DNA of 64,000 nucleotides from Ricordea florida (taxonomy: Eukaryota; Cnidaria; Anthozoa; Corallimorpharia; Ricordeidae). Shown piece after piece: positions 28-64,000 of the stretch (positions are counted from its first letter, which is position 1; each line of letters opens with the position of its first letter). The stretch spans positions 32,778,218 through 32,842,217 of the forward strand of contig OX453275.1 of the NCBI GenBank assembly GCA_949710005.1, given 5' to 3'. The position numbers and the translations under genes are program-made. Below the pieces are notes generated by a model. That model did no database searches. It was not told the DNA's origin and was given only the letters and a program-made list of their open reading frames with translations.

Positions 28-1197
28 CGCTCCAGCCAGGATCACAAATACATGTTTGTGACGCCGTCAGGCACTGCCCATGTCCTGAGCAGTCCTTTTG
101 GTAGCCAGGACACCCTTGCTTTTCACAGTACGTTCCTCTCCAACCAATAGAGCCACAGTCGCATTCACCATTCTCGTCACATGTACCACCATGACCAGAA
201 CACAGCATATCACAGGCAGGCCCGTTATAACATGGGTCGCATTTACAAGTATGGTCACTCTCGGGCATGCCAAACTTACACGGCAGTTCACACGCTATGC
301 CCATCCAACCTTTAGAGCAATTGCATTTCGGTTCATCATTGTCTGTGGCAGGAGGTTCACAAACGCCTCGATTGTTACAGTCTGGAGAACCCGGACAGTC
401 TGGAATGTCACACGCTTTCCCAGACCAGCCAGGAATACATCGGCAGACCATGGTCCCTTTGTTGCATGTTCCATGATTACTACAGTCATACGGCCATCCT
501 GGGCAACTAGGTATATGACAAACATCACCTTTGAAACCTGATTCTTTGTCGCAGACACACTTTTTATCAACGCAGTGCCCGTTTTTGGAACACTCCAGAT
601 TGCAGCCTGTCCCCGAGTAACATGGATCGCAAATGCACCCTGATAAGTTTCCAAAGTTTGTTCCCTTGATGCATGGAATTTCACACGCCTCGCCAGCCCA
701 GAGCGGTTCACAGTTACATATCCTTGGATTGGTATTGCTGCAAGCACCGTGGCCTGAACAGATAGGATTACCTGGGCAGTCTGGCGTGCTGCAATCATCA
801 CCGGTCCACCCTTGACTGCAAATGCACTTCTGCAGTTTAGTGTTACAAAAACCGTGATCAAAATCGGTGCACTGTCCTGGACAGCCTTCTAGTTCGCAAT
901 ATTTGCCAAGATGAGCAGCGCCTTCTTCTTGGTAGCATATACATTTGTCACTTACACACTCTCCAAATCCAGAACATTCACTCTGGCATCCGCTTCCAGT
1001 GAAGCAGGGATCACAGACACAAACACCTTTCTCAGGATGGCCATGTATACACGGATCGTTACACGCCGGGCCCATCCAGCCACTGGTACAGTTTATACAT
1101 TCCGGTGTTACTCGGTTTGTTGAGTTGCAGAATCCACGGCCAAAGCAGTTTGGAACTCCTGGACAATCTGGGAGATGGCATCCGATTCCCGTCCAAC
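28..1197 (-). CDS. Exon 40: EGF repeats 22-34, continuing beyond the window
   Basis: It encodes residues 10791-11180, phase 1 to phase 1. It begins WTGIGCHLPDCPG and carries three full quartets, with classes PDC, DPC/IPC, EC/LC and PGC/EGC/PSC in fixed order. It ends in a PGC-type repeat at CDPGWSG with donor GTAAGC at 27-22. No stop codon occurs, so more EGF repeats or another C-terminal region follow outside the window. The four-class order is retained although sequences have drifted (LPCKFGMPESDHTC lost the PMDSG string). Confidence 0.92.
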
Positions 1198-4100
1198 CTA
1201 GTAAAACATTTGATCAACAATACAAAGAGTAAGAGTTAAAAATAAAAATCCCAATACAAATATGAAGAAAAATGATAGCAATTTTATCATAACTATAATT
1301 AAGGATTTTTTTCTTGGGGTGACAAGCAACAAAATAAGCTCAAAAATACTATTTAGATGAACGTTGTTCTCAGTTCGCACTTTTAATTTGCCACTAGGTG
1401 GATTGTGGGGAAAAAAACGTGTTGCAGGCATACTTTGAGCAATGTTTGCTTTTAAATAATGTTTGACACAGTACTTGGCTGTGAATATATGGGATAAATG
1501 TGGATGAAACTTGAAAACAACGTTGTAAGTCTTGAATTTGCTACGCAATGCAAACAGTTATTCCTTGTTAAGACTTCCACAAATATGTATAATGAATGTA
1601 TAATGATTGGCTGGTGGGATAAAATAAGATAGTGTTGAGTCAATTTTCAACACCATCGTTTAATAGTTCCAACGTGACTTGGTCGTCGTTTAATGCCATC
1701 GCATGCGCAGTTTAAATCATACCCTTTAAGTAATGGTCCGCGTAAGAACTAGGCAGGTCAAACGCAAAATCGATTCAAAAGTGTGAACTCTTAATTATTA
1801 ATATCAATTAAATCGACGAATCTGATTGGTGGACGGCCAAAAATCGCCGAAAAAACAATGAAAAACCCGACATAAACAACATTTTTCTCCTTAGTTTTCC
1901 CCTGGTCCCTCCTGTCTACCTCACGGTCAAATATTAGCATTGTTCTATGCGCCAATCAAAAATTAGAGCTATTGCACTAGCCTATTGTTCTTTTGCCTAG
2001 TTCTTACGCGGACCATTACTTAAATGGAGATATATTATACAACTGCCGTCGAGACATAAACACTTTTTCACAGGGTCACAGAGTCACAGGGTTTGTTTCA
2101 ACTTTTCGATCACTAACCTGGTTCACAAATGCATTCATGATTAGCACTGTCACACTTTCCATGTCCACTACAGTCCTTCCCATCAGCCCCTGGACATCCG
2201 GGTACTTCACAAAGTGTACCACGCCAACCTAACAACTGGTCACATACACATTTATCAGCAACACAAGACCCATGTCCATAGCACTCTACATTGCATCCTC
2301 GCCCCGTGAAGCAGGGATCACAAACACAATCGCCACTGTCCATAGGTGTCTGCGTTCCATTTGTGCATGGGTCATCACATGCGGGGCCCATCCATCCCTG
2401 TATACAGTTCGTGCATTTTGGTGGATCTGATGATGAGTTGCAGAAACCTAAAAGAAAAGGAAGCCGAATTAACCCACATTGTAATCCATCACTTATTTTC
2501 GCTCAGGCGCAATTGGCCAAAATGCATCATATGACTCGACAAAACTTGGCTAATGGGTTGCTACGTATTTACATGAAGTTATACAAGAATTTATACATTA
2601 TTCGATGAAGGAAACAACTAAAAACATCAAACAACAACTATAAATTCCGCCTCTGATTAAAATGCCGCAGCTTGGTATCGATTTGAAAGAGAACTGTGTT
2701 GTCTACGTACCTCTGTTTGTACAATCTGGATTTCCTGGACAGTCTGGAATGTCACATCCAATCCCTGTCCATCCATTGTGGCAAATGCAGGTATGGAGGG
2801 CGCTGTTGCACTCGCCATGACCACTGCAATCGAATCCAATCCCTGGACACCCGGGATTTTCACAATACGTTCCACGCCAACCAACATCACAATTACACGT
2901 GTCATCAACGATCTTACCATGTTCTGAACATTCACTGTCGCAGCCAACACCGACCCAGCCGGGTTGACAAACACAGTTCCCACTGTCCATGGGAATTTGT
3001 TGGCCGTGTACACAGGGGTCGCTGCAAGCTGGACCCATCCATCCTTGGACACAATTTTGGCACTGTGGGGGATCTAACGAAGCATTGCAGTAACCCTGTC
3101 CATTGCAGTTTGGAGAACCAGGACAGTCAGGTATTTCACATCCTTTCCCATCCCACCCTTCGTTGCAAGTGCATACGTGAGTCACAGAGTTGCACATTCC
3201 ATGGCCAGTACAGTCAGATCCAATGCCAGGGCAGCCAGGATTATCACAGAGTTCTCCTCTCCATCCCTCCTCACAGTGGCACGTGTTATCTACTATCGTT
3301 CCATGCTGAGAACATTCACTGTCGCATCCCACACCTAAAACACCATAACAAATGTTGCCATATAAGTCTATTATTTTCTTGCGGTTTGGACAACGAAACG
3401 ATCTACTCCATAAACTAAATAAACGCAATTCAAAAGAGATTTTGACATTCAACTCTTGTTCTTTCAAGGTATACAGTGGTAAGGTATACAGGCGTCTTTG
3501 AGCTTCATGTACTTTTGAAATTATTTATTGTACAACTACTATAGCAATTACCTGTGTAACCAGGCCAGCAAAGACACTGACCACTATCCATTGGAATCTG
3601 CTCCCCAAACTTGCAAGCATCAGCACAAGCGGGACCCATCCAGCCTCGAGTGCAGTTCTGGCATTCGGGAGGAGAGAGGGATGCATTACAGTATCCGCGC
3701 AAGTTGCAGTCAGGTGCACCAGGGCAGTCTGCAATATGACATCCAATACCAGTCCAACCAGGATAGCATGAGCACTCACGCGTGCCGCTATTGCAGTCAC
3801 CATGGCCGGTGCAATCTTCGTCAATGCCTGGACACCCCGGAATTTGACAAACATCACCTCGCCAACCTAACAGTGGCTCGCAAAGACAAGTACCACTATC
3901 TGAACAAATTCCTCTTTCCATACATAAAGAATCGCAGCCTTTTCCCGCCCAGCATGGTTCACATTTACAAAAACCACTGTTCATGGGTTCTTGAATTCCA
4001 CGGACACAAGGATCGTTACAGTCAGGGCCCATCCATCCGCTTGTGCAGTTAACACAAATTGGACTGGGAGTATCTACAACACTGCAATTCCCACGGCTAT

Positions 4101-7100
4101 AACAATCCGGCTCCCCTGGGCAGTCTGGTTCACTGCAGTCGTCTCCACGCCAACCTGGATTACAGAAACAAGTGCGAAGCACGCTGTTGCAGATGCCATT
4201 TCCTGAACAGTCATTTGGACATTTAGGAACTTCGCAGAAGTCACCTTTCCATCTACTATCACAGCTGCAAGTTTCGTTGTCACACGTGCCATGCCCAGAG
4301 CAGAGGGAATGGCAGTGTTTACCTATAAAGCACGGATTGCACTGGCATTTACCACCGACGCAAGTTCCGTTACCAGAACACTCTAATTGACAGTCATCAC
4401 CAGTGAAACATGGGTCACATACGCATTGCCCGGTAAAGCTGCATCGTCCATGCCCGTGGCAATCAGCGGTCGCACTGCACTTATGTTCACATCTATAGCC
4501 AACGTACCCTGGATCGCAGTCGCATCCACCAGACTGTGAGCACTGTCCATGACCAAGGCAGGTAATTGAAGAGTTGCATTGGTAAGCACAGTTTATTCCA
4601 TAATAGCCAGGATCACAAAAGCATGTTCTGGATTGTAGTAAGAACATACCATGTCCACTACACTGGTTTCCGTCTCCACAAAGTTGCCCTCTTGTACCAG
4701 GACCAACGCCTGACGCTCCAGCTCCTCCCTCAAGGTTCATGTTTTGCAAAATGTCTCTTCGAACGTGATCAGGTGAGAAGTATCGAAGATATCCTCCACC
4801 ACCTCCACCACCGTGGTGGTATCGATCGCAACAGTGAGAACAGCTTGGAGAATGGAGGTAGCTCCCGCTACCACCCTTGGCAGTGAGATGGCCATGTCCT
4901 TCAAGGTGTCTGCCAGTAACCCAAAGCGTCCCACCACTTGCTCCACCGCCTCCACTGTCACCACTGTCACCATCGGATTTAATCCACCCATCCAGCTCGA
5001 GCAACTTCTCCGCGGTTACGTAAATGACACCACCACCGTACGTTGAACTCTTACTTCCACCACTTCCAGCCATGTGCGCGGTACAGGGCTGCTCGTATAC
5101 ATGACCAGCTGATGAAAGGAAAATACAACTAGAATGACACTGAAACTTTGACCATCACAGGTTCGACGAAGAATTGAAAAAGGGAGATTTAGCTTTCGCC
5201 TTGAAAAGAATAGACTTCAGCGGTAATGGAGCCACACTTAACTAAAATGAGGACGTTCCAAAGCTAATATCGTCGTCTATTTCACTGAGTTAGAAACAAA
5301 AAAGAAGACTTGCTGTCCTTAACAGGGAATAATCAAAGAATGTACTAGCTTATAAACAGCTTCCTCGCACAAACGGTGCCATTTTGGAAGAAAACGTAGC
5401 CAGGAGAAGTGGCAAAGAAACTCTTAAGGCTTGTAAATGGCAGCGCCATGTTTCACCATTCTGATTGCGGAAGGAGCGGGTAATAGTTTCGAGAAAATAA
5501 GGTATATAAATGGTATTATGTATCAGTAAAATGATACCAAAACATAAGCGAGATTACAAATAATTTAAACGGGATTAAAAACACCTGTGACAAGCAGATA
5601 GAGGGCCTTGCCAATACTTTTAAGCCAATAGACGTAACTGAAAAATAGGACAGCCGCAAACATACAACATTCCTAACTCAACAACGCTTACCTCCATTGC
5701 TGTTACATGCTGAACATCCGGTAATTTTTCCCCAGCCTCCTGATCCACCGTGGCCAGCACCGCCAACGCCTTCACAGGTTGTATGACTTCCAGGGCCATT
5801 TTTGGTTGACCAACCAAGGTGGCTTGCATCGACATGAGAATCAGCCTCTAAGCTGATATAGTCGGAATACACATTAACAGTATCTGCTTTCACGCTTCCC
5901 GTATAATCTAGAGCAATCATGGACAAGTGAAGATGCACAGTACTCGCCAAGATGTCTGTCGATGTACTTTGTACCATGACATTCCCACCGAGCATGACCT
6001 TCAGCTTTCTGAACCAGTAATGCCCAGCATATGGCGCTGAGTAGATACTGCTGCATTGTAGACAGGACGAACGTCCTTGCTTTGTTATAAAAGCTTTTAC
6101 GTTGGAGAACAACCTTAACTCCTCGATACCATGGATTTCGCCATTAACGTATAAAGCACTTGATCGAGTTCCACGAAGAACAGTAGTAACTGGGAATACA
6201 ATCTGCCCTCCTGAGTCTACTTGGTAGTTAACTGGGGCTTCTGTACGAATACTGTGTGTCTCCACGTGTATGCGAGTTTTACTCACGGCCACTAATAGAC
6301 CCGTCTTGTCTCCCGTCACTTGCCCAATGTACATCTCGGAAACCGCTCCTGGAACCTACAAGCAAAGAAAAAAAGACCAAGGATCTTTCTAATATGCCAA
6401 AAAAAACATACATTTCCGTTGAAACACAAAAATTATTCAGTCTGGCCCGGTAAAATTTCAGTTGAAGGTATTGTTGACTACTTTCAAATGGAGTCCAGAG
6501 CCAGTTCAACGTTGGTTGAGCCTAATTACCAAGACTTGAGGACCAGTCTAAAAAAACCTTGATTCCAGTCCTACTTTACTTAAATGTAATCGAAATTTTG
6601 TTAGATCAAATTGTGTTTATCTTTTTTCTGCTCTTAGAACAAAACTACTCTCCTCTGCTGCTCGCATATTTGCTGATAGGTGGACAACCACGTCTGTTTC
6701 GCAGTTAACATCAGCCTTCCTGTTCGGTGCACCATATCTGTCGCTAAAGCATGAGATTTTAAGGAAATATTTAATTTTGTTTTGTCCTACCTATTGGCTT
6801 CTTTTTTCACTTATTTTTAGTTCTGCCTTTTCTGACCAAATCCGAATTTACTGGTATTTGCAGCAGCGGTTATTTTCAAAGTGAGCCCTCGTGTTGAGCG
6901 TCGTAAGTCTTAGGGCAAACTTCGTCGCATAGAAAAATGTTGAAATAATATAAAATGATATGTTTCATTCTGAAAATAGCAACCATGTATTGCCTTACCT
7001 CTCGGATGGCAATTTTGCCGTTTCTTGATAAATGAACTATTTCAAACCGGTAAGCCGTTGTGTTCTCATCAAGGACGACAGGTCCAAGACTATCTCTGTT

Positions 7101-10100
7101 CTGATGGTCAATCTTTATTATGCGGTATGGCTCCTCTCCAACATTCACTTGAATATAAACAGTTCCACTTCCACCAGTTCCACCATTTGAGTTGGAGGCA
7201 CTTGCACCACCCAGAGTAGTGAGAACTCCCCTGAAGACTAAGCGTTCTGTCAAATGAACAGCTATGCGGCCTCCTGCGCCTCCTCCATTGTAGCTTGGCC
7301 CTATTAATAATGGTAATTGAACTGAGTGGAGTGCAATTTGGTTTGAAATCATACACGTGATTTCAGACCAAAATTGCACTCCACTCAGTTCAATTACCAC
7401 TTCATTACACTCAATTTGAAATCAGAGTTTTCTGTCAATACTTATTTATCCACTTCAGGAAGCCCAGTTTTTGAAAAAGAAAAACTTTTTAAAAATGATG
7501 CGATTTAGAACAAAAAATGGTGCAATTTGTGAATAAATCACACTGCTATGGGCCAATCAAATTGCAGGGATCACCAGTGATTTCAAAATGGTTGTAATAA
7601 ATACAGAAAATTGTGTCAGTCTCCTGTGACATAAGTTAAATCTTGTCATTGCGGTAACAAACGAGCAAACAGAGCGTCACTGACCCACAAGACATAACTC
7701 ACCTTGTTTCCTTACATTGCCCAAGCTTTGATTTATCGATGTAGAGACTTATTCTTAAACGGAGTGTGTCAGTACCATAAGATTACTCTCTTGCTAAGTC
7801 TTCAAGGTCATCTTTTTTTATCCATGATGCATGTACAGTTATTGTACAGCAACCCTAAATTAATTTCCCCTTGTGTATAGTGCACATTCGTAGAGGGTTC
7901 TGAAAGGGGGGGGTACCAATCCCACATTTCAGTGCTCAGATCCCATTCCCACTGGCAGAATTCGAAGAAAAATTCCCATTCCCAGTGACCGAATCCCAGT
8001 CCCAGTGACTTAAATCCCATTTTTTCCAGGGCAAAACCCGGCCAATCCCAATTGTCATTTTACCCCTTCAGGACCCTCTTCGTAATTAAATTCTCATTAC
8101 TTTATTGATTTTGTTGCTTGACATTAATTCACTCGTTTTGAAATGAACATTGCTTTAACTGCGCACCCACTTTGTGGTCCCTATTTGCGCATTTAAGCCA
8201 TCGATTGCCAGTAAATGCTTGTAGATTTCACGCTCCTATATTATCGGCCAAAAAACAATAACCTTTCAGTACAAATATGTTAATTAACGATTATTCGCCT
8301 CAGGCTCAGTGATTATCGGTGAATATTCACCGAAACGAGGTCGAGGTGAATAATCACCGATAATCACTGAGCCTGAGGCGAATAATTGTTTTAGTATAAA
8401 TACACAGGTGATTATTTCAAAAAAAAAAAAAAAAGGATCGTACAACACGAAAACACACACACATTGTATGACTGGCAGCCATTTTGTTCGTCGAGGTGAT
8501 TATCAGCTGATAATCCAAGATAGCGAACCAATCAGAGCGCGCGATTTTGTATAATCACCTGAGTATTTATACTAATATGCAATAAACCACAGTTTCTATG
8601 GGTTAACCGGCGCAATAAACAACAAGTGATGTTGGAAGAACACTAGAGTTGCTTGTAAATGACGAGCCGCAGACGAGTGATTTACAAGCCCTTCGAGTGT
8701 TCTCCAAAATCCCAAGTGGTTTATTACGCCGGTAAACCCATAGAAACTGCGGTTTATTGCTTTCATAAACCAACTTTAAATAAAAACAGAAAACGTTTCT
8801 CTTTTCGATGGGTTTACAATAACCCATAGGTTTTCGACCAATCAGTGCGTGCGTAGTATCTGAGTTATTTTATAAGTATGCATATACAGACCTCCATGTG
8901 ATTCAACAGTTCCGGTGCCTTTTAGAAACAAGGTCTGAACAATGACAGAGCCACCGCTTCCACCACCATTGTGATTAGACAAATCTCCGACTCCATTTGA
9001 CTTTACAGTTCCTTCCAAAATCAAGAGATTCCCAACATGAATATATAACCATCCACCACCCGCACCGTAGCCTCCGCCACTTCCGGGATCCTGAGGCCAA
9101 TAAACTGAGCCGTATTGAGTACTCGTAGACACTTCACCGCCAGGTGAGGCGTAACTTCCCCCTTCATTTCCTGTGCCTTTACCAGGTCCAGTTCCGGCTT
9201 GGTAACCACTCCCTGATGCGTCCACAAGGCTTTCACTTTCAATGATGACGAGATCGGCATTTATGGTTACGTGTGTTGTGGCAAGCGTGAGTTGGCCACC
9301 TGGCAAAATTGGAATAAGAGAGTGACACAAACCAATCTACAAGAGTTTTGGAGCTCTGTTGGTGGAACAAAACACACTTAATATCTCTATTCATAATTCT
9401 TGCTCCTTTCTTGAACGATTTGAATCTAACTTTTTTGATAATACTCCCGTCAACGTTGTAATTTAATGGCACAGAAATTTCTTGTATCGAGAAAGAACCA
9501 GTCAGCTCTAAACTGAGGAAATTCCACAGATTCCAAGTCAAACAGAACAAAACCAGCAGTTCAAACCTCTCCATTTTCTAGTGTTTTTCTTCATATGTAT
9601 AAATGTAAAAGTCAAATTTACAGTGTCGCGGAACCTAACGTTTGTGTTTATTTGAATATTTTCAACGTACTTTATGATCCCATGACTCAAAAACCAAGGA
9701 ACCAGCGTCATCTTATCATTCTGGTGCAATGCGTAGAAAAACGAATTTACCTTTCTTAACAGTGATGTGTGCTACTTCAAGAACAGGTCTCACAGGATTC
9801 ATATTAATCCTCACCACACCCAAATTGTTTATAACAAGGTCTGGTACAACAATCAGTCCAGGAGTGAAGGGATTGAACGGGTTGTTGGAAAGCCACTTCG
9901 ACTCTTCAGGTAGTTTAGCTGTGTGCGCTGTTCCTCCGAACTCCACCACCCCGTTTCGTTCAAGAACAAGACGTTCTACGCCAGTCATTCGTCCCCTTAT
10001 GGTCGAACTTTCTCCACGAAGAATAACCTCGGTAGGGAGAATGATTTCTGCATATTCATCCACGTAAAAATTGCAAGGCGCATCCATGTAGGTATGTGTC

Positions 10101-13100
10101 GATTCAATAACAAAAACAAACAAACGCTGCCTTGCTGTTAACTTGATAACTCCAGTCTTATCTCCTGTGACTTCGTGCGCTATGACCGTCACATTTTTTG
10201 CATTCTTAGGGTGATAAAAGATCGCTGTAGAATGACCTTCAACTTGCATTTCATCAAATTCGTAGAACAACGTTTCGTTTTCCATGATTACCGTTGGTGT
10301 TGTAACGCTGATGTCTTCGTTGTCGACCTTGACTTTAGCATGTTCGGGTTTGAAGGTCGTTAGATTTGCATCGGGATTATACTTGAGTTCACGGTACTGC
10401 GGCCCACGGCGACTTTCATACTTATAAACAGTACCAGCGGCACCCGCGTTACTGGCGTTGTCTGGGCGCACACTTTTACCACCTACAGACCGGAATTTAC
10501 CTAAAATGTAAAAAAAATATCTCTTCTTTAAACGATGATGCATACAAATCTACTGCATTACTACATTAGTGTTATAATGTCCTAAAGAGAATCATCTAAC
10601 CAGAAATAAATGTTTCTGTTACAGTCTAAGTGTCCCAAACAGAATCCTCTAACCAGAAATAAAACGGTCCTATCTTAGTCCAACAATGTCCTGTACAGAT
10701 CAGCTTAACCAGATCCTATACAAAACGATCCCTCGAATAAAAATCCCGTTTTACCTTAAGACATAGATAAGGAATCCTTACAGTAACCCAAATGCATCAC
10801 ATCATTCGACTCGAGCATCACCTCCGTACATTTTACAGCGGAGCTGTTCACGGTAAGTTTTTTCAAAGGACATAATATCTGGTAAACAAAACGTTTTAGC
10901 AACTCACCTGAATTTTCCATGTGGTTGATTTAGAATAAGTTCTTACTATTATCACACACTTTGTTACCAAACGTTCAGGCAAAAGAGTAAAATCAATATT
11001 CACCGCCAAAGTTATTCTGGAAGTCAACGTGTATTCCAATCCGTCCTCCTGCTCCTCCTCCTCCACCATCGTTGCCATCTCCTCCATTCACTACAATTTC
11101 TCCATGTCCGGTGACGTTAGTTGTCTCAACAAGAACGCTGCCTCCGCTGCCTCCTCCACCATACCGGGATTCCGCGCTCTGGCCTTTGGATGAGATCACT
11201 CCGTCCAAGTGAAGATGTTTACTTACTATCCATCGTAAGGAGCCCCCTCCTAACAAAACACAAGCAACGGTTCACACACTTTAAGGTTTCGAGACAAGTA
11301 ACATTTATTACATGTTAGTATAAATACTCAGGTGATTATACAAAATCGCGCGCTCTGACTGGTTCGCTATCTCGGATTATCAGCCGATTATCACCTCGAC
11401 GAACAAAATGGCTGCCAGTCGTTCGCACGCTTTTGATGAAATAAAATGTTTTCGTGTTGTGCAAGGCCTTTTCTTTTCTTCTTTTGAAATAATCACCTGT
11501 GTATTTATCCTAAAACAATTATTCGCCTCAGGTTCAGCGATTATCGGTGAATATTCACCGATAATCACTTTGCCTTCGGCGAATAATTGTCAATTAAAAT
11601 GAAGACCTCGTCCTCGAAACGTTTGTGCAATTGCGATTTAGCCTTAAAAGGGAACGAGATTCGGACCCGGGACCTCGCGAATACCGGTGCCACTATAGTC
11701 TTAATGAATCTGTAAAAATATGCCTCGTGAGGAGCCTAAGCTATTTACCTAAGGCATGAAAAACGAATGGAAGCACACAAAAAATAAAAACCACGCAAGG
11801 AAAACAAACCTGCACCACCGCTACCACCTCCTCCGCTTCCAAGAGACAAAGGCTTATAGACAGATCCATATGCACTTCCACCAGCATGAGTATTATATGC
11901 CGTGCCTCCCTCTCCACCAAAGCCGCCACCTGAGCCCCTCGAAGATGACGACAGAGAGCCAGCTCCAGGTCCACTAGATGCTTGATGACCAGCGCCATCC
12001 AGTTCTAAGAGGCCTTTAGTTTCAAGTTCGGCAAACGTCGAGTAAAACACCCCGTGGTTCACTTTAATGGTTCCTTTATGGAGTACTTCAATTAAGGATG
12101 ACGTCAAGGACACAATGACGTCATAAACACGAACGAGGTCTAAAACGCCACCCTGTTTGATTATAACATGTGCAAACGAACTGTTCCCAGGTTGCGTTAG
12201 GTCAATATAAGTCCTGTTTTCTTTTATCGCCGTTTGTGCAGACGCGGCTATTTTCAAGTTGGCTCCGTTCTCCAGAAATAAGAAATGTACTCCTGTCATG
12301 AGGCCGTATAATTCGGACCTAACACCATGGACATGAAACTCAGCCGGTAGAACGATTTCAGCTCCTTTATCTATTAAGTAGCTACAAGGAGCTTCAGTTC
12401 TATTGGTTTCAGATTCAACAACCTCCACATAGATTGTTTGATTGACTCTTAGATGGAATTGGCCGGTTTTATCACCTATAAATCTATGGGCTACTACTGT
12501 GACATCGGTGATATTTGGATGGTATACGATAAGCCGAGAGTACCCGGTCAATTCAACTTCGTCAAACTCATAATAGACTGTTCCTTCTTCCATCAGTACC
12601 GTCGCTTCTGGCACATCATGGCCCTCATTGTCGACATGTAAGTAAGTGTGATCAACAGCTAGAAACGTTGTATTGGTTTCCTTGCTGTACTTCAATATAC
12701 GATACTCTAACGGACGGAAGTTCTCTTCCTTGTAAACGGTTCCTGCTGGAGCCCCATAAGCATTCTGTGCTCCGAAACCTCCGCGGTCTGAGAACTTTCC
12801 ACCGTAGGTGTACCTCCAACGGCAGTGTATTCCTACACGGCCTCCAGCTCCACCTCCCCCTTGGCCAGTGTCGCTTGCGGATCCCCCAATAACGGAAATC
12901 TCGCCGTGACCGGTCATGTTCGTAGTACGGATGAGAATGCTCCCACCACTACCACCTCCAGCACCGTTTCCATCTCCATCACCACCTTTGGCGGATATAA
13001 GTCCGTTCAGCTCCAGCCGTTTACCAACCTCCCAAAGAAGTTGCCCACCTCCAATTCCACCTGAACCCTCACCATTTCCTCCGCCACTTCCTAATTTCAT

Positions 13101-24121: not shown

Positions 24122-24154
<33 letters not shown>

Positions 24155-51100: not shown

Positions 51101-54100
51101 CGGCCCCTCCTGAACTTCCAAACATCGTGGGTCTCCTATAGTCCCCATATGATATACCAACTTTTGATTGACCTCCGCCCATTCCTCCGTGGCCACCATG
51201 ACCTCCACCAGAAGAACCGGAAACGTGATCCCAACCTGCACCATAGAAACGGGATCCGGGCACAGGGTCGACGAGTCCATCGCCGGACAATGTACCAAAA
51301 GGTTCGACTGTAATGTTGATATAGTCCAAAGTGAGGCTGGTGGCTTCCACCTGAAAAGAGAAAACAAAACTCAAGATGTGGGCATCTCAGAAGTCAAAGA
51401 TTCCACCAAACACTGAATATTTTACAAAAGAGCATAAGGGCTTCTTTAGAAAACCTTACGTGTTAAGGAGACAATACAGCAGGTACCCAGAATTTATGAC
51501 ACAAAACAAAGTAAAAGAATAAGACAGATATTATGCATTTTGAGGCGATCGTCGAAGGCATATTTCTCAGCTTCTTTTCTGTGTTACTCGATCTATTTCT
51601 ATGAACTTTATTCACGGTCGCCACATCACACCTTCATCCGAATTCGGATTTCTAACTGTTGACGATGGATAGACTATAAAGTGCATTCTGCTCCTAGCTT
51701 TATTCTCCAAATTTGGAATTTTAGACATTTTTCAAATCAATACGATTCAAATAGTTATCTTAACAACGTGTTGCCTTCATTGTTTTTCAACTTTTTTTTA
51801 CAAATGGTCAAATTCATAGCTATAGTACCAGAACAGCCAACAATTATCGCGTGCATCACTGCCGAACTAATCTGACAAAATTCACAATTCTTTACCTAGG
51901 ACCAAAGATGTGGAATTTCCATTTTGTTACAATCACTTCGCTGTCAAGTTTTCCTAACTTCCTAAAAAAAAACTGCTAGAATGTTTGGTAAAATAATTCC
52001 TGAATTGGCTAAGCACTATCTATGTAAACATATTGTTATGTACGAGTTGGTCTCAACTACAAGCCCAGTGGTTTCAATGAACTATGTACACGCACATCCT
52101 TTATTGATGTTCATTATCTTCATCAGTAAATATTATAATTACAAAAGCTAAGGATAGAAATTTAAATTTCATCAGAGACAATGAAACACAAAGGCATCCT
52201 CTGCCCGCAAATAGCTGAGGCTAATCGAGGTGGGCAGAGGAAAAAAAGGAAAAAAATATTTTAATAACAGGAAGAAAGTTATAACTAGGAAGAAATTAAG
52301 AATTAATTAATTATTACAATTATTATATCATCAAGATCTATCTATATAAATGATTAACCGTATTATAATGTAATATCACAAAATATACAAACTATACAAG
52401 CTTACTTTACATTTCATGTCACCTTAATTTATTGATTTAAGTAGGTATGTCAACAAAAGTATCTTCCAATTCTAAGAGCTGATGTAAAGAAGCTTTAAAT
52501 TTGAGTCTACAGAGCACTTGGATACTTGTCAATAACTTGGAAATTGTTATTATCTTAGGAAAAAAGGCAAATAAATGATGACAGCGGACACCTAAAACTC
52601 AGTTAATAGGAGGAGATCGAGCAACACCAAAAAGAAGCTAGAACTAAGACAGATGTTGTGGAATAGGTAACTCACAACGATGAAATAATGCACAATGAGA
52701 ATTATTAATTGACAGTCCAAAATGTAAGCAATGACATCAAAAAAATCTTCCTATACGCTTCACCCACACTAACCTTGGCACCTCCCCGCACATCAAACGT
52801 CGTTCCGTTAACTTTCACATCTTTTCGATCCTCTCGGACTACAGCCATGTATCCACCAGTCTGAACAACAACGTGATCGAACGCAAACTCTGTTTCCGAA
52901 GAGTTTTCCAGTACAAAACGGCATTGCGGTCCTACCGTTACGTTGGACATATTCCCCATGATACCTCGCATGACCACCTCAACTCCTCGACAGTTCATGC
53001 TGGTTGGGAAGGTCACTGTGGAACCTTTTTGTGATAGCACCGAGAATGGTAGATGTCCTTCTGAGCCCCTCATGTGAATGGTCTGTGTTGGGCGCACTGT
53101 AAGGATGCCGCTGCTGTCGCCGACGATCTCGTCCATACTGACATGGACGTTGCTTCCAGATATGGAGAGGCTCCCTTCGCCAGTGACGTGAAGCTGTTGA
53201 ATTTGAACAGAAAACAAGAAGGGCGGTTTTCAGCCGACTGTGGTAAAAACAAACCCAATCATAAGAGACATACACTGTCGAATTAAGGAATTAGACCGCA
53301 AAGCAAATAGATGTCGACAGCAACAAGCGCGGGAAAACTCGTGCGACCTGGCTTAGTTTTGTTTCTGATTGGTTGAAAAAATGACACGATATTAGTAAGC
53401 AAACAATAAAAATGCAAACATTTTGATGCGTTGATTGGGTGAGAACAAGCCAGTTAATCAGTGCAGAAAGTTGAAATTGAGTGCAGAAATTAAAATTAAA
53501 GGCTTGAGCAATTTTTTCAATCTTTGAAAAATTTATTTGTGCTTATTTATTCCAAATTGCACTCGAATCCATTCACCTAAATCACCTATAACGGCAAAGG
53601 AAAACAGGTTTACCGTCGACTCAAAAGTGCCAGTGTGAGGAATTTTGACGCTAGATCTCCGTCTATTCCCATGCTTCATTGTGCATGGTGTAGCTTTAAG
53701 TTTCGTTCTTCTAAGACACATATGTTCTTACTTGTATATTCCTAGAAAATTCAGCTACAACATACATAATGAAGTATGGGGTGGTACGGGAATGTGACCC
53801 TCATTTTCAGAAATTTCGTGGTGTGAAATTATATGGTCAGAAATGCACGTTAATGAGATTCATACTCCTCATAATAGACACCGCGATGTGTCCTGACTGT
53901 TTTAATCTCACCAAAATAACCAATATATGTCCTAATTATTCCTTATTCCAAAATAGCCGCCTTTTATATATTCTTTTGTTTTCATTTAAGTCAGACATTG
54001 ATGCCTCGTTCAAGGTAAAAAATTCTTTTGAATTTTAGCTTAAGAACGAGGCATCAAGGGATGCTTTGAATAAAAACAAAAGAATATTTAAATGGCGGCC

Positions 54101-57100
54101 ATTTTGAAATAATGCGTATGGAGTGATGGAAATCCCAAATCACTCCTACAAACATGAAGTGTTTAACAATGTGTAGTGCATTTCTGGCCAATAGTGGTGA
54201 ATTGACACAAAATTTCAAAAGAAGCTACCTAGTTAAAACTACTTCTTAGCGCGTTTACCATTGTCATCAACACTAACACAGCTATTACCTCATCAAAGTG
54301 GTATTCCTTCACCCTTTCGTCTTCGCTCACAATCCATGCTGTGCTCGGACTGGTGTAGTGAGGTGTCTGGACCGTCGTGAAAGGACTTTCACGAACAAAG
54401 AAATTCACGTGACTCAGAGACGCATAGAGTTGCAGTTTCTTCAAGCTGATTATAACCTAAAGAAGAAATCCAGATATTCAATATTTCTATCATTAGATCA
54501 CTTTATTTATGTAGTATGCAGCCGTTTGTAATTTAGTGTTGTAAAATCGAAACAAAAGTAATTATTCTGACTATTAAAATGGACCATGATCAAATGAGCC
54601 AATCAAGGGATGCCGTCAGCACCAAAGGCCGGAAAACTCGACTAGTCACGTTTTACTTTCTATTGGATCAGAAAGTGGCGCACGATTGTTCAACCAATCA
54701 CATATTGTAGCAATGCAAGCAAAAAGATCGCTAAATTACAATGATGACAGTAAACTGAAAACAGCTCTGTTGTCTTAATATTCATCGCATATTACACAGA
54801 AAATCTTAGTTTGGCATATTTGTTTGAGAGAGAAGCTTCAACAGCAAAAAATGCAGTGGAATGATGACACCTTTATTCGGCGTTTTGGTTATTAATACAC
54901 GCAACTCGCAACATATCCGCGCAAATTATATATATGCATTTATTCAACAGAAAGATTAACAATGGGGTTGTGTATTTTCAGAAGTCAATTCGGATTTTAC
55001 AGGAGAAAACAAATCTAACCGTCTCAGTTTACAGTTTCTGGTGAATAGATTGTCTCTCATATGACTTTATAAGCCTGGTTCACACGTACGAGGAAAACAT
55101 AAGCACCTGAGAATGTAAATCATTCTACTCCCCTTATGCTTGCTTCGTTGTAGTTCCTGTCGCTGCGAAGGATCGTCGCGACGCCCTGTAAATAGGGACG
55201 ACGCAAGCATAACCACACGCATAAGGTACTTATAAAAGCACCTATTTTACAAAAAGGTTTCTTGTGTTTATTCCCGTGTTCGTGTTTTACATGTAAACCA
55301 GCCTTAAAAGATATACGATTGCACATCCCCGACTCTACTGGCAAAACCCCTGAAAAAGCGTATTTTACAACAAACAAAACCGCTAATAGCTTACCTATGC
55401 AACGAAAGTTTAGCCTCCAACTTACTACTTAGAAGTATACTGTGATCGTTTCGTGCGTGCGTTGAATGTAGATAATGATTTGTAATTAGCGTTTTCTTGA
55501 CCTATTCGGAACACGAGAGGAACTGTAAGGGTCAGTCATGAACGGTAGCCGTTGCGTGATTAAACGTGCAAAATTCGCGCACTTGGGTTTTCGTGCTGAT
55601 TCCCGTGTAAAGTACACCGTCAACAGGCTTTCTGTAATGAAAATTGTCGTGTAAATTAAGCATCAATGATTCGTACCTTGTCCACCTGTCGCCTAACAAC
55701 CATACTTGCTGGTTGCCCTTGGATACAATTGGACGGATCAATCCAGTTACTGGAGCTCTCGATAAGACTATCATTTAAGTAGATGTGAACCTGATAAGGA
55801 GTCGCGTAATTCCCACCACAAGCTGGATACACTACCAAATATTCCACAAACAAAGGCAATGGAAAAAGATAAGTAATAACAGGATTTGAGTCTCTTGTAT
55901 AGTACCAAACTGAGCTGGATGAAAATATATTTCCTAAGACTGAATTGTCAGTGGCGCAAATTTTACTGTCTGAAGTAGAGGTCCTTAGGCAATAGGGAGT
56001 CCCCGTTGTAGTTACAATAACTCCATTAGGGGCTTTATAAGTTTTGATGTAGTAAGGATAATCGAATGTATTTCCTGTTAGTACTAGCTGCTGTACTTCA
56101 TTCAAACGGGACGGTCCGCTTGGAGTCAATCCATTATCAATCTTAAGAACGCGGTACGGGTAAGTTGTATTTTGCTGATTTTCAACGTACACTGTTCCGG
56201 CGCCTCCCTTCTCAGCGGCGCTTGCTCCACCGTAGCTCTGGAAGGAGCCAATAAACGTGTAATTTCCTCTGTAGTACACGGCAATTCGACCTCCCGCTCC
56301 ACCCCCTCCATAAGGGACAGTGCTCGAGTAACCTGAACCCCCGTTCACCGTTACGGAACCTTCACCATCGAAGTTCAATGTGCGGATGACAATACTACCC
56401 CCGGCACCTCCGCCACTTGAGTCGTCCACAGGTCTTCCTCTGCCAGCTTCACCATCCGCATGAACACGCCCCTCGAGCCGTAACATTTGCGATACTTTAA
56501 AAACGATACGACCTCCTCCATATCCTCCCACGTAGATCAGACCGTTTCCACCTCCACTTCCAAATTGTGTGGGTTCATACAGTGAGTCATAGGCGTTCGG
56601 AGCTGGAAGAGCTGCAAAACCACGGCCACCTCGCCCACCGTGACCGCCGCCTCCTGCTCCGGTGTTGTACGACGTACGGCCACTTCCTCGAGCAGGTCCT
56701 TCTTGTGGACCATAACCTCTTGCGTCCGCTGATACGTCAGCTACATGCGTCACATGGAGAAAAAACGTTAATATGTACAAGTTTTCAAATGACTGTCGTT
56801 AAACCAAAATCAAACTGAATCGTGGAACTGAGGCGGCAAATGACGTCATCGATACCCTCCCTGGTGAAGATATGGAAAATACGCCACTACGGTCCCAGTA
56901 GTAGTTTCGTATGAATTTTACGAGTGGTGTAATTCCCAGTAAAACACAGACGCCTATATAAGATAATGCCATATATAAAAACCTAAAAACCGCGACACTT
57001 TATACATGGATTTGCCTTGCCTTCACCTGTCAGCAAGAATATAAGATTAACTAGAACAATAGAGGAGTTTGAGTGTACCGGATATATAGGTTTAATTGAA

Positions 57101-60100
57101 CTCTCTGATATGCAATTTTATGCCTTTCCTGGACGGAAGTTGGTTAACCGGGATGTTCTTTAAAGACATTTAAAATGCGCACAAGAAAAGACATTTTTGA
57201 ATTGGCATTCATAACTATCACTCAAATACGCGGCAACTCTAACTTTGATAAACAGAGGCAAATCTACCGATTTTTTTTCACACTTAAAAAAAATTGGAGG
57301 GAGTTACATTTTTATGTAATCTACTCACCAGCGACATCTATTGTGGCGTTGACTGTCTCTAACCGAAAGTCATTAACACTGGCCAGACCCCCGGCGTTTA
57401 TGACGAAACGTGTCATATTGAGAACAACTGGACCGTAAAGAGGAAGTCCAGTCGTGTGCAATAAACCACGTGACTTGATAGACATGTTGATAAACTTGAA
57501 GTGGCCTTGTTGTTCTCCAAAGGAGTTGGCAATCGACCAAAGATACAATTTGCCATATCTGTCTATTGTGTAATCGTCTGAGTCTGCCAATGTTCCATTG
57601 ATTTCCATGTAGACCTCTCTTAAGGAAAGTCGACGAGGTACTTCGAGAAATCCCTCGGGATAAACAAGACTATTGATTGGGAAATAAATGTCAACGAACT
57701 TGAATGTAACGGACTGGTAGCGACCAATATGGAGGACACCACTCCGATCCCCTCGAAGCGTGTGAGCATGGAGAGTGACGTTCTCGCGTGATCCGTTCCC
57801 GTACAAAGCAACATGTGAGTTGCCATGTAAATGAAATTCATCCACAATGTAATTGCTTGCTTCGTGGAGCCACGTGACCGCACCAACGTACCTCGTATCG
57901 TCGTAGATGCCGTTTTCGAGTTGACGAAGACGTCCTTCCGCTTTGTTAACAGCCCATGGGTACGCTAACCCGTAGTTGTTTATCTTAAGTACTCGGTAAT
58001 CGACTTGACTGCCGTTTCTAGTTTCAAGATACACGGTGCCTGATGCTCCCGGTTCGACACTACTCTCCCCACCCTTAGCGGAAAGGGTCCCATTGAAGTT
58101 TAGCATAGTGGTGTGAAAAATTGCTATTCGCCCGCCTGATCCACCACCCCCAGTGCTCGGTGACCCGGCTCCCCCCGTCACGGTAATCGTTCCATAGCCA
58201 TCTAGCTCCTCACACGCGATCCAGATACTTCCCCCGCTTCCACCACCAGATGTACTTGGAGGCGGACCATCCTCGCCATTTGCTGACAGATGCCCATCAA
58301 GTATTAAGTGACGTGTGTTGATTTTAAGTGCTCCGCCTCCTTGGCCACCGAGACCTCCCCGGGTGATAATGTTTTTCGCAGGACTGCTTGTTTGTGTGCG
58401 ATAGTCTCCAAAGTACAGTGTACCTGATAGTAAAGCAATCAAGAAAACAGAAAAACTCCCGCATTTTTGAAAATGTATATTACTCTTTCCATTGTGTCTT
58501 GTTCTATTGACAAACTACATCTAAAACCTGTATCTCAAAACTGAACGAAAGTGAATCGTAACCAAAGACTTTGTACAAGTGAAGAATTAACAGTAGTAAA
58601 TTGACCAGTCCTTAGCAAAAGATGCGTATATTTACCATAACAATTCCTACGAAATTTCTCTTTGAGGCACCAAGAAAACTTCGGTATGAATATTTGGCCA
58701 TCTGTCTCTTCAACTATCATCCCATAGAAATCTCGAGCTCATAATCTAATTGTTAATTAGTATACACCTACTCGGCAACCTTGGCATTTTGAGGTATCTG
58801 ATCGGGATCAGATCTCGGGATTTTCAACACTATCCACCACCTACAAGGTGAACAGTGCCGGGGATTCTGGGAAAGCCTAGTGCAAGTGATTTTCATTGTC
58901 ATTTCTGTGTGACTGAGGCTGCCTCATTGGTTTTTATAGAATAACTCAGATACTACGCGCGCGCTGATTGGTCGAAAACCTATGGGTTATTGTGCCGGTA
59001 AACCCATAGAAAAGAGAAACATTTTCTGTTTTAATTCAAGTTAGTTTGTAAAAGCAATAAACCGCAGTTTCTATGGGCTTACCAGCGTAATGATACCGAA
59101 AAAATTATTCTTTTCAATCTCGGTAGCTATTTTGCCACTATTCACCGCGATTTCAGAGAATAATTTTTTTTTTCAATTAAACAGCTTAGAAGAGTTCCTA
59201 AGTGGTTTTGAACAACTAAGCCAGCTTTTCCCAATTAGCTGAATCATACGAAAGGGCGACGATATGCGCTCACCATAATGCCGCCCGTAACCTCCAGCAC
59301 TTCCGTAGTCATACGGAGCTTTGTACGATCCGTAAAACTGACCCACGCGATTCGCACTTGTCCCACGTCCACCCGTCCCAGCATACCCTGCACCACTTGC
59401 ACCTGAACTGCTCCCAGACCCCTGACCAGGTCCCTCTGAGGGTTCAAATTCGTCTCCAGTCCTGCCATCTTTGGTGACGTAACCTGCATGGTTGTGACTC
59501 AGTTTTCCACCGGAATTAATCCTCAGCAGATGATGGACAGTTATGTTCAATTTGTTGTTGGATTTGAAGTGACCACCACCATAAATCTAATTCAACGAAA
59601 GAAGAACGATTTAAAGACATTTCAGCTGGGCATCTCACCTTTTGATCATTAGGAGTTTAAGCTAATAATAATTAGTTAAAATCTACTAGTATACCAATGC
59701 AATTGCCGAAATCTGATTGGCTGAGGTACTGCACACTATCAGCCATTAGAGTGCAGCACTTGGTTGAAAATCATTTTCAAAATGGCGACACCCTCGCGCT
59801 TTAGCGAAGTTTCGCAGGAAGATTTAGTGTTTTGGTATATTTTTTCACCGACACATTATTCGTTTATTATAATTTTTACTAAAACAATTAGATTATTCGC
59901 TCTCGATTTCTATAGTCGAATTTTTAATAAGTGCATACAGCCTGATGAACCAAACAAAAGCAAAAAAGATGTCAGAACTGGAGCGCGTGAAAACGCGTGC
60001 GAGCGAAGTTTGACTTCTTCGGATTGGTTAAGAAAGTTGCCGAGGATTTTTTTAGCTTTTCACTTTTCGTGGCAATGCAAAAATAACAAAATTACGGAAT

Positions 60101-63100
60101 TACTTTGGAAAACGAATTAGACACGCGATTGCGAATACCTTAAATGTTCGATAGTCGTACGGTTGCCCAAACATGGACGCTTGACTTTTTATAGTGCAAG
60201 AATAAGCACTGTCGTAAAATGAAAGTGCATAGTCGAGTTTTCCTACCGTGAGGTTAGTGAGCTTTATACGGCTGCTGGAATCTTTGTCATATGAATGAAG
60301 TTCAAACACTCCTCTGTCCTGGACGTGAAGGGCCTGGACCCAATATTCCCCTGGCAATGTTTCTTTCCCGAGGCTTGAATTTGAATCGGAGAAATAAGAC
60401 CCCCCATCAAACACAAACAAGTCTTGTACACCCCAGATCTAAACAGAAAAGAAAATTGAGACAGACGCTAATGAAAATTTCAACACAAACAAAATTAATT
60501 ACGATTACTCTAGTTTGTATTGGTCGAACGATATTTCCGGGATTTACCCAAAGTGGATGCAACATTTATCATGACAACCACCACGAAGTGTCTCCAAACC
60601 TCACACACACAGACTTATCACTGTTAATGGATATAAAAAACCTTACTGTCTCACAAGAAGCGGTTACTAAACAAAGATTTGCGCAAATCTCTACAATTAC
60701 CCGGTTAGGTTATCCTATGGCTCTCTTCCTACAGATTAGCAAACTTGCTGATAAAAGGGTAACGTTTTGGCCTGTGTCTGATGCATTAAAACAAGAAGTG
60801 GCGAAATGGCAAAACCAACTAATACGTAGCCTTACAATCTTGGCCAAAATGTTTCGGACAGTTTCCTGGATTCCCACTGAAAAATCAGTATCTCTGATTA
60901 CTCCCCACCCCCCCTCAAAAAAAAATGTTGATCACGAGAAGTCGGATACATGTGCAACATATTATGCAGTTTCCGTAGTTCAACACAGTGTAGGGGGGGA
61001 GCGATGAAAAATCTTTGTAAAAGGTTTCTGAGGAAGGACTATTTTGACGTTTTCAAATTACACAGAACCAGACAGGTGAACTGTCCCATAAGGGTTTGTC
61101 CACGACTGTAGCTATGTATAACAAGGCTTTGTATCCAGCTCTCACTTTCGCCTTCGTCTAACTCTCACATACCCACCCCTCCCTCCCCCCCCCCCCGCAT
61201 CCACATCCCAATCCAACGCGGCATCAACACAAACTCACAATCACATAGGAATTATAGAGTTTCTTAAGCTGATTCACATCACCTTTCCAGATGATTTGAA
61301 GCTGACTTGTTGGAGAAAGGCGCGTCTTGGAAGCAGCATACTACCATTTTCATACACACGCAGACCGAAAGGAATATCGGGATCAGTGACAGTAACAGAG
61401 AAGTTCTGTTTGTAACCGACATGAATGTACCCACTCTTGTCACCAAACACTCTATCGGCATGAAACTGCACGGGAGTCTGCAGACTGTTCAGTGGCATGA
61501 TAGCAAGCTGAGCAGATCCCCGGATATACACTTCACTGAAGCTGTGAAAATTAGTGCCAGCCGCTGGTTCTATCCAAGTTTTAGCCCCACCAAACCTCTT
61601 GTGCTTGTATCTAGAATTAAGAGACATGAATCGAAAATTCAAACAATCTTTTAAGAGCCGATAGACGTAACTAGAAGGTTGACCAGTGCGCACGGGAGGA
61701 GCGCGGGCGCACCAAAACACCTACGGCTGTAAACTGAGCTTAGGTCCGTTATTCCTGAACCCAAATACTTTGTGTAAGATCCCTCTATTGTCATATCCTT
61801 CTCAGGGGTTGTCTTTACCTATCAAGTGTCTGTTGGGTAACATTGTACTTACCACTAATTTGAGTATATGAAATGATTCATACTTGTATTGCAGGTGGAA
61901 ACGTATATGGAAATTTATCATTACATGTGCCCGGTTGGTCTACTGACCAGCAACTTCCTGTGACTACACACCCATCAAGAGTTACAAAAGTTAAGGGTGA
62001 TGTTTCTTACGTTCACACACGTATTCACGAGGAGGCGGGATCGAATCCCTTCCCAGTCTGTTCTTTTTCCAACTGCTAAATCGCAATTATTTGAATTGCG
62101 TAAATTATGCGGAGGTCAAATTCGTAACTGCTATTCCTACCTTTTCCACACCTCTTTTCCTGAAATAAACACCTCAAGCTCCAATAGAGGATTGGAGCTG
62201 GCTGAACGTGACAAATCCACATAAATCTTGGTTGCATTTCTCCTGACCGGCAGATCCACGTATGACCCCTGAACACAACCAATGCTCATTCTAACGTAAT
62301 TACTAGTCACAGGTACATCCATGTTCCCGTCATAAGTTGTCACCTATAATACAAGAACAATCAGTATCTCAGGTGCTTCGTATCATCGAGAGAGTGGGCC
62401 TAGCTTTGTAGAATTCTTTTGGGAGATTATCTTCGCCATGCAGATTATAAGATCGGAGAATTCCGAATTCTCAAATAGGGGTTTAAATGTATACGGAACT
62501 TCATTCTTTTGCAACATTCTAACACTGATATTCAAATCCAAGCAGTACGCAGGATGCTTGTCCCATGAACCTAGTTCAATGGCCTTGCTTTCAAGAGTCT
62601 CCTATAGCTCAGTAGTAGAGCGTCTGAACTAGTTATCTTTACTTTCAAGTCCTAACAGTATGCAGTATGTTTGTCACATGGACCTAGTTTAATGGCCTTG
62701 CTCCCACGAGTCTCCTGCAGCTCAGTGGTAGAGCGTCTGAACTAGTTATCTTTACTTTCAAGTCCTAACAGTATGCAGGATGTTTGTCCCATGAACCTTG
62801 TTTAATGGCCTTGCTTCCATAAGTCTTCTGTAGCTCAGTGGTAGAACGTATGAACTACTCATCGCAGGTTCATAGGTTCCACTCCTCAGTAATAAAACTT
62901 TTTATTTAACAAGCTTAATATACACCATCTTATTACATTAATTCACAATTTAATTTCCACAACGGTTGCCCATTTTCTGTTGATTTTAGACATCACACTT
63001 ACCCGGAAGTCAGAAGGAGTCCCACTGCAGTATGGGTAAATTCTAACGTGATTAACGAACACAGAACTTTTCAAATCCAATGTGAGTTTTGTGTTGCCGC

Positions 63101-63668: not shown

Positions 63669-64000
63669 CTAAAGAGAGGGAAGGTAAATTCACTCGCCTC
63701 AATTGCGGTAGTCTGCATTCATTTATGGAGACATCATCTACCTCTCACCGCCATGAGGTGGTGAGTAGTTACGAGCAAAGTTCTATATGTACCGCATTGA
63801 GATGCTTTTCAAAATTTATCTTTTTCAGCTTAAAATACTGAAGATATGGGGTTTCACTCTCTCTTGTTATAAGAGGGTTAATTAACCGTTAGCCGTAAAA
63901 CAGTCAAAAATATTAACCGTTAGCCGTAAAACAGTAAACAATATTAACCGTTAGCCGTTAAAGTCACCACCCCATTGAGACCCTCTTATAATTACCCTTC
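63669..64000. repeat. 31-bp tandem repeat inside a foldback, in the intron before exon 1
   Basis: Three copies of a unit starting ATTAACCGTTAGCCGTAAAA occur at about 63882, 63913 and 63944 (period 31). They are enclosed by inverted arms TTATAAGAGGGT (63869-63880) and ACCCTCTTATAA (63981-63992). This looks like a short non-autonomous element or satellite seed. The rest of the stretch shows nothing coding. Confidence 0.7.

What the first reader, a model, noticed from the sequence alone, without database searches (positions are those of the whole stretch)
28..63668. A single gene of more than 11,180 codons filling the whole window, open at both ends
Forty exons on one strand join with GT-AG sites and matching phases at all 39 junctions, giving 33,541 coding bases without a stop. 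Exon 37 contains both module types, so the glycine-rich and EGF parts cannot be separate genes. Few animal proteins reach this size. I recognise no named gene with this architecture.
Basis: partly seen in the sequence, partly recalled or inferred. Interest (0 to 1): 0.85.

Follow-up and report, generated by a model that had tools for sequence, protein, structure and literature searches.

The report
Giant beta-solenoid and EGF surface protein gene
The window is the middle of one enormous gene, probably from a coral-like or anemone-like animal, whose unstudied and misnamed relatives run in the same order from molluscs and starfish to amphioxus and, in part, a single-celled relative of animals.

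Summary
A splice model built here on the minus strand gives 39 exons, 38 introns, 33,295 coding bases (11,098 codons) and no stop, from 63668 to 28. Exon 36 (3582-5108) carries both the glycine-rich and the EGF parts. The single-gene reading is strongly supported by comparison. Thirteen predicted proteins of 12 named species align in the same order and continuously cross 36 of 38 exon junctions. Some reach 3,827 residues upstream or 4,376-4,884 downstream. The whole protein is therefore probably about 16,000-20,000 residues.

It is not without relatives: databases call them 'Tenascin-X', 'TENX-like' or 'uncharacterized', names that fit poorly. It is a chain of 24 modules of about 400 residues, predicted to be beta-solenoid, then 19 teneurin-type EGF matches. 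In two relatives these are followed by a homologous tail with a C-terminal transmembrane segment. The best reading is a very long, stiff cell-surface rod used as tether, spacer or adhesin; the function is inferred. Ten searches of an open-access library listed no paper describing the family.

The parts
63003..63668 (-). exon 1: part of a solenoid module, start of first discoidin-like insert
   Evidence: F5/8 type C match below cut-off
62141..62343 (-). exon 2: rest of first insert
   Evidence: homology to Asterias and Mactra, model
61283..61610 (-). exon 3 (boundary exon 2/exon 3 uncertain)
60247..60438 (-). exon 4
   Evidence: homology to Asterias, Owenia, Mactra, model
59274..59586 (-). exon 5
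57329..58423 (-). exon 6: most of a solenoid module
55677..56740 (-). exon 7: half module and second discoidin-like insert (weak acceptor)
54289..54456 (-). exon 8
   Evidence: homology to Saccoglossus, Owenia, Mactra, model
52774..53193 (-). exon 9
50154..51350 (-). exon 10: most of a solenoid module
48862..49075 (-). exon 11
47979..48119 (-). exon 12
47372..47562 (-). exon 13
45584..45832 (-). exon 14
   Evidence: junction 14/15 crossed by no relative
44899..45159 (-). exon 15: third discoidin-like insert
   Evidence: junction 15/16 crossed by no relative
43620..44114 (-). exon 16: rest of third insert, start of next half module
42262..42792 (-). exon 17
41026..41817 (-). exon 18: part of a solenoid module
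40448..40715 (-). exon 19
38556..39453 (-). exon 20: part of a solenoid module
37944..38169 (-). exon 21
35859..37357 (-). exon 22: solenoid modules
27615..35062 (-). exon 23, 7,448 bases: five complete solenoid modules, parts of two more, one Cys-containing insert
26428..27387 (-). exon 24: part of solenoid modules
25135..26153 (-). exon 25: part of solenoid modules
24323..24698 (-). exon 26
19015..19424 (-). exon 27 (after the 4.9-kb intron)
   Evidence: junction 26/27 crossed by 5 relatives
17861..18604 (-). exon 28
16737..16989 (-). exon 29
11810..16462 (-). exon 30, 4,653 bases: three complete solenoid modules and parts of two more
11004..11249 (-). exon 31
9751..10500 (-). exon 32
8892..9299 (-). 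exon 33
6999..7300 (-). exon 34
5692..6355 (-). exon 35
3582..5108 (-). exon 36: last glycine-rich half module joined to the first EGF repeats
2711..3334 (-). exon 37: EGF repeats
2118..2447 (-). exon 38: EGF repeats
28..1197 (-). exon 39: EGF repeats, donor at 27; gene continues beyond the window

Best explanation
The window is the interior of one very large gene of a cnidarian, probably an anthozoan. It codes for part of a membrane protein of roughly 16,000-20,000 residues. Shown here: one long spliced frame; 24 modules of about 400 residues followed by teneurin-type EGF repeats; collinear orthologues in a sea anemone, bivalves, an annelid, echinoderms, a hemichordate and amphioxus, and partly in a choanoflagellate; a confident all-beta model that aligns best to beta-helix proteins. 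Inferred: the modules stack end to end into a stiff solenoid rod more than 200 nm long. In two relatives a homologous tail with a C-terminal transmembrane segment follows, one of them with LamG labels, so the rod would stand out from the cell surface. It would work as a tether, spacer or adhesin, the discoidin-like inserts and LamG-type domains giving sugar or protein binding.
Confidence: 0.75

Rival explanations
1. Two or more tandem genes of one family lie head to tail, and the splice model has joined them.
For: A break in the 4.9-kb low-GC intron is slightly preferred when breaks are nearly free. Mya has two annotated models for the two halves.
Against: Junction 26/27 across that intron is crossed by 5 relatives. 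Both Mya models are listed with the same longest contig length, 64,373,224, so probably one split gene. The EGF and solenoid parts share exon 36. Potamilus, Saccoglossus and Amphiura models overlap through the middle.
Confidence: 0.1
2. It is a true tenascin-X or teneurin, as some database names suggest.
For: Teneurin-type EGF profiles match strongly; some relatives are named Tenascin-X or TENX-like. Tenascin FN3 repeats would follow the EGFs (recalled), beyond the window.
Against: Most of the protein is solenoid modules without a Pfam family above cut-off in the exons scanned. The precomputed Pfam list of Pinctada, which runs thousands of residues past the EGFs, has LamG but no FN3, fibrinogen or teneurin barrel. 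In relatives the only TM-like segment is C-terminal.
Confidence: 0.03
3. The locus is a decaying or silent copy (pseudogene) of the family.
For: No expression data; one weak acceptor at exon 7.
Against: The two largest exons, 7,448 and 4,653 bases, are open throughout, and the largest keeps 66-75% identity over 94-100% of its length to its 18 nearest relatives, as expected under purifying selection.
Confidence: 0.03

Closest known systems
Predicted 'TENX-like' / 'Tenascin-X' / uncharacterized giant proteins of invertebrates (Potamilus CHS0354_004948, Mya TENX-like and MAR_011998, Pecten LOC117331103, Patiria LOC119725183, Saccoglossus LOC100369350, Branchiostoma Bbelb_437250, Amphiura, Actinostola QZH41_005193)
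   Same: Same modules in the same order over thousands of residues, 34-61% identity; read as orthologues.
   Different: All are partial or split models. The exon structure is given here for one species, and my searches listed no study of them.
Salpingoeca rosetta PTSG_11389 (choanoflagellate)
   Same: Same modules, and a Cys-containing insert at about the same place (by eye); three collinear pieces over model residues 2843-7337, 28% identity.
   Different: Partial model; only 5 of 11 piecewise best hits lie on the diagonal; ends before the EGF part.
Glycine-rich beta-strand repeat proteins of bacteria (Planctomycetota, Verrucomicrobiota and others)
   Same: The first, glycine-rich half of the module (profile positions 1 to about 200) is repeated in them.
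   Different: In 13 of 15 bacterial, archaeal or unnamed proteins that I looked at, no near-full module was matched; P0160 and P0167 had 2 and 5.
Bacterial beta-helix adhesins (HMW1, HxuA, antigen 43)
   Different: No sequence relation shown; Foldseek alone not significant.
Teneurins and tenascins
   Same: EGF repeats of teneurin type.
   Different: Different main body; TM-like segment at the C-terminus in two relatives.

Membership tests
Invertebrate 'TENX-like' giant family | Collinear series of about 400-residue glycine-rich solenoid modules | tested here: met
   24 modules in the window; collinear with 12 metazoan models
Invertebrate 'TENX-like' giant family | Teneurin-type EGF array directly after the last half module | tested here: met
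   alignments of Amphiura and Pecten run through this join in one piece
Invertebrate 'TENX-like' giant family | C-terminal LamG-type domains, transmembrane segment and cytoplasmic tail | not testable with these tools
   lies outside the window; TM-like segment in Actinostola and Pinctada models, LamG labels in Pinctada
Tenascin | Tandem fibronectin type III repeats | tested here: inconclusive
   no FN3 match in 24 of 39 exons, about 9,790 of 11,098 codons; 15 shorter exons not scanned; the part after the EGFs is outside the window; Pinctada's precomputed list has no FN3
Tenascin | C-terminal fibrinogen-like globe | tested here: inconclusive
   outside the window; not in the precomputed Pfam list of Pinctada
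Teneurin | EGF array of teneurin type | tested here: met
   EGF_TEN E=6.8e-56, 189.9 bits against a cut-off of 65
Teneurin | NHL, YD-repeat and Tox-GHH barrel after the EGFs (recalled definition) | tested here: inconclusive
   outside the window; not in the Pfam lists of Pinctada or Pecten
Teneurin | Single N-terminal transmembrane segment, type II topology (recalled definition) | tested here: inconclusive
   N-terminus outside the window; in Pinctada and Actinostola the only TM-like segment is near the C-terminus, and both models are incomplete at the N-terminus
G8-domain proteins (PKHD1, CEMIP type) | G8 domain above Pfam cut-off | tested here: inconclusive
   21.4 bits against a cut-off of 22.9 in exon 23; precomputed PF10162 in Patiria and Mya MAR_011998
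F5/8 type C (discoidin) inserts | PF00754 above cut-off | tested here: inconclusive
   below cut-off in the first insert, no match in the other two; precomputed PF00754 in Mactra and Owenia

The most novel reading that the evidence does not exclude
A single gene for one protein of about 16,000-20,000 residues, with its order of more than 24 solenoid modules fixed before animals arose, builds one of the longest stiff cell-surface rods known. It has gone unnoticed because gene callers split it and name the pieces after tenascin.
Probability: 0.45. Interest if true: 0.78.

Novelty: new variant of a known kind. Interest (0 to 1): 0.62.

Why it matters
Giant modular surface proteins are a known kind, but this family seems to be undescribed in the papers I could search. 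Its module order is conserved across animal phyla and partly in a choanoflagellate, which points to strong, old constraint on length and order in a protein whose job is unknown. It also appears split, partial or misnamed in every named model seen here, so gene sets of many marine invertebrates are probably wrong at this locus.

Tried and rejected
Considered and rejected: chance open frame; separate glycine-rich and EGF genes (exon 36 holds both); tandem gene array (junctions crossed by relatives); bacterial contamination (38 introns, nearest named relative a sea anemone at 61%). The one genome-contig scan, with exon 30, gave 5 pattern matches and no relative; a scan with a single protein reaches close relatives only.

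Led nowhere: no tRNA and no Rfam family at gathering score in the window; one chance-like PDB sequence match, E 0.17; Foldseek against viral models, best E 0.0021. Ten paper searches listed no paper that by title and abstract start treats this family; several lists were cut (15 of 122, 10 of 52, 12 of 34, 15 of 497), so this is weak evidence of absence. Six gene or locus names of relatives occur in 0 papers. I saw passages of one paper, PMC10236652, which do not mention it; the others were seen as search listings only. That plant glycine-rich proteins such as AT5G47020 share the motif is recalled and was not tested; a search for three such names listed six papers, none a functional study by title.

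A first tree of exon 23 included a wrongly cut Amphiura piece, because that model covers only the end of the exon; it was dropped and the tree rebuilt with 23 rows, 17 of the 39 unnamed full-length relatives among them. A homology-weighted gene model had a spurious 5-base exon and poor boundaries and was replaced; searches use that earlier model's numbering.

Full report
Observation. A splice model trained only on the window found 36 exons on the minus strand with 32,695 coding bases and no stop. Searching the window with ten named relatives showed three further short coding regions. The final model has 39 exons from 63668 down to 28, 38 introns in matching phase, 33,295 coding bases and 11,098 codons. 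GT-AG ends and freedom from stops are demanded by the model. Introns have a median of 643 bases and a maximum of 4,898; 18 are in phase 0, 17 in phase 1, 3 in phase 2. The same model, with parameters trained on the minus-strand gene, gave on the plus strand 1,419 coding bases, on the reversed sequence 7,207 in 51 small pieces, and on three shuffles 195-790, against 33,400 on the minus strand, so the finding is far beyond chance.

Edges and breaks. Models that may start and stop genes found no break at a cost of 10 log units in the first version. Two later versions at that cost preferred an edge alternative: a start at an ATG at 63754, and a stop at 17 in place of the donor at 27. At a cost of 3 a break in the long intron appeared, with a gain under 4 units. 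These alternatives are weak, and the relatives, which continue past both edges, speak against them.

What it is related to. The largest exon (7,448 bases, exon 23) was searched alone: 489 proteins passed E 0.001 among 7,984 candidates scored, and the best 120 were listed. Of the top 41, 39 align over 85-100% of the exon at 36-75% identity. They come from unnamed sources and are 2,354-2,762 residues long, about the length of the exon, which suggests that this giant exon is itself conserved. Two more searches, set to find long proteins, brought named models (461 and 943 candidates scored): Potamilus, Mya (two), Mactra, Pinctada and Pecten (bivalves), Owenia (annelid), Saccoglossus and Ptychodera (acorn worms), Amphiura and Patiria (echinoderms), Branchiostoma (amphioxus), Actinostola (sea anemone), Salpingoeca (choanoflagellate). 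A weak named match was the alga Tribonema (E 3.7e-6).

One gene. Of these 16 named animal or choanoflagellate models, 13 (12 species) were aligned to the final spliced protein. The three left out, Asterias, Ptychodera and Solemya, align in three scattered pieces each at 24-32%. Amphiura aligns as one piece of 5,715 columns (46% identity), Potamilus as one of 6,759 (35%), Pecten and Patiria also as one piece each; the others in two to nine pieces. Together they cover the whole window with large overlaps. Of 38 junctions, 36 lie inside a continuous alignment (at least 14 of 20 columns on each side) with at least one of them and 35 with at least two; the exceptions (14/15, 15/16) flank an insert. 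Three of the 39 exons were found with the help of some of these relatives, so their junctions are not independent evidence. Cutting the solenoid part into 400-residue pieces, 101 of 137 piece-and-relative pairs had their best match at the collinear place rather than in another module; with 200-residue pieces and eight relatives it was 257 of 390. No shuffled control was run, but with well over ten modules in most models the chance rate would be far lower. This argues that the order of modules is ancestral. The junction across the long low-GC intron is crossed by five relatives. Two Mya models for the two halves are listed with the same longest contig length, which suggests a split gene.

Size. 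Mactra has 3,827 residues before the part that matches the start of the window's gene. Pinctada has 4,376 to 4,884 after the part matching the last exon, depending on how the EGF repeats align. Actinostola has 1,676 after its last match, which lies at model residue 10,667. Adding these gives about 16,200-19,800 residues. This is a sum over different species, so it is an estimate. No signal-like start was seen by eye in the orthologous models that reach upstream; Ptychodera, a more distant and shorter relative, begins with a signal-like peptide.

Architecture. A profile of 18 of the window's modules (396 positions) found 27 matches in the window, which I read as 24 modules: three are split by an insert of about 170-200 residues, the first is cut by the window's edge and the last is a half. 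All 214 forward sequences matched and none of the 214 reversed ones. The inserts look discoidin-like, but only weakly: the first is below the Pfam cut-off and the other two have no match; Mactra and Owenia carry the precomputed F5/8 type C label. The EGF exons 36-39 give 19 separate matches to the teneurin-like EGF profile (8, 5, 1 and 5) and EGF_TEN up to E=6.8e-56. In Actinostola and Pinctada the tails beyond the window are homologous to each other, and each protein has one TM-like segment near the C-terminus followed by a cytoplasmic-looking tail; Pinctada carries LamG labels.

Deep origin. The first half of the module is repeated in bacterial proteins; of 15 bacterial, archaeal or unnamed proteins that I looked at, 13 had no near-full module match. 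The whole module is found in animals and in Salpingoeca, where 8 of 9 matches are near full length. Salpingoeca aligns in three collinear pieces at 28% identity and shares a Cys-containing insert at about the same place, seen by eye. However, only 5 of 11 of its best hits are on the diagonal, so orthology with the choanoflagellate gene is likely but not proven. A careful tree of exon 23 (23 rows, midpoint root) keeps the four named bilaterians together, apart from a clade holding the window, with Salpingoeca on a long branch.

Species. The window is closest among named species to a sea anemone (61% over 3,562 aligned columns in nine pieces), against 34-46% for bilaterians. I infer Cnidaria, probably Anthozoa; the genome search that could have told did not complete.

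How it probably works. A membrane protein whose ectodomain is a very long solenoid rod, with an EGF stretch and LamG-type domains near the membrane, is best read as a tether, spacer or adhesin. The steps shown are the frame, the order, the conservation and the predicted all-beta fold. The membrane anchor is seen only in relatives. The function is inferred from architecture.

Names. Tenascin-X and teneurin fit poorly. No FN3 was found in the 24 of 39 exons scanned (about 9,790 of 11,098 codons), but tenascin FN3 repeats would lie after the EGFs, outside the window; Pinctada, which runs far past them, has no FN3, fibrinogen or teneurin-barrel label. Most of the protein is of another kind, and the TM-like segment of two relatives is C-terminal.

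Noticed in passing
62531-62857: Tandem array of a 113-base unit (2.9 copies, 87% matches) in intron 1 that contains a tRNA-like stretch (TAGCTCAGTGGTAGAGC); looks like a tRNA-derived SINE. ARAGORN and Rfam report nothing there.
   Followed up: no
19425-24322: The longest intron, with low G+C (about 35%) and a TAT microsatellite at 21876-21956.
   Followed up: partly
60261-61007: Open frame of 248 aa on the plus strand, antisense to exon 4 and the neighbouring intron; no evidence that it is a gene.
   Followed up: no
63881-63962: 31-base tandem repeat, 2.6 copies, upstream of exon 1.
   Followed up: no
relatives of exons 23 and 30: A group of unnamed proteins of about 3,300-3,600 aa that match the glycine-rich half module also carry a caspase-like peptidase label (PF00656 with PF24595).
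   Followed up: no
27615-35062: A 7.4-kb exon holds five complete modules and parts of two more without an intron, so module borders are not exon borders; this is unlike classical exon shuffling.
   Followed up: partly
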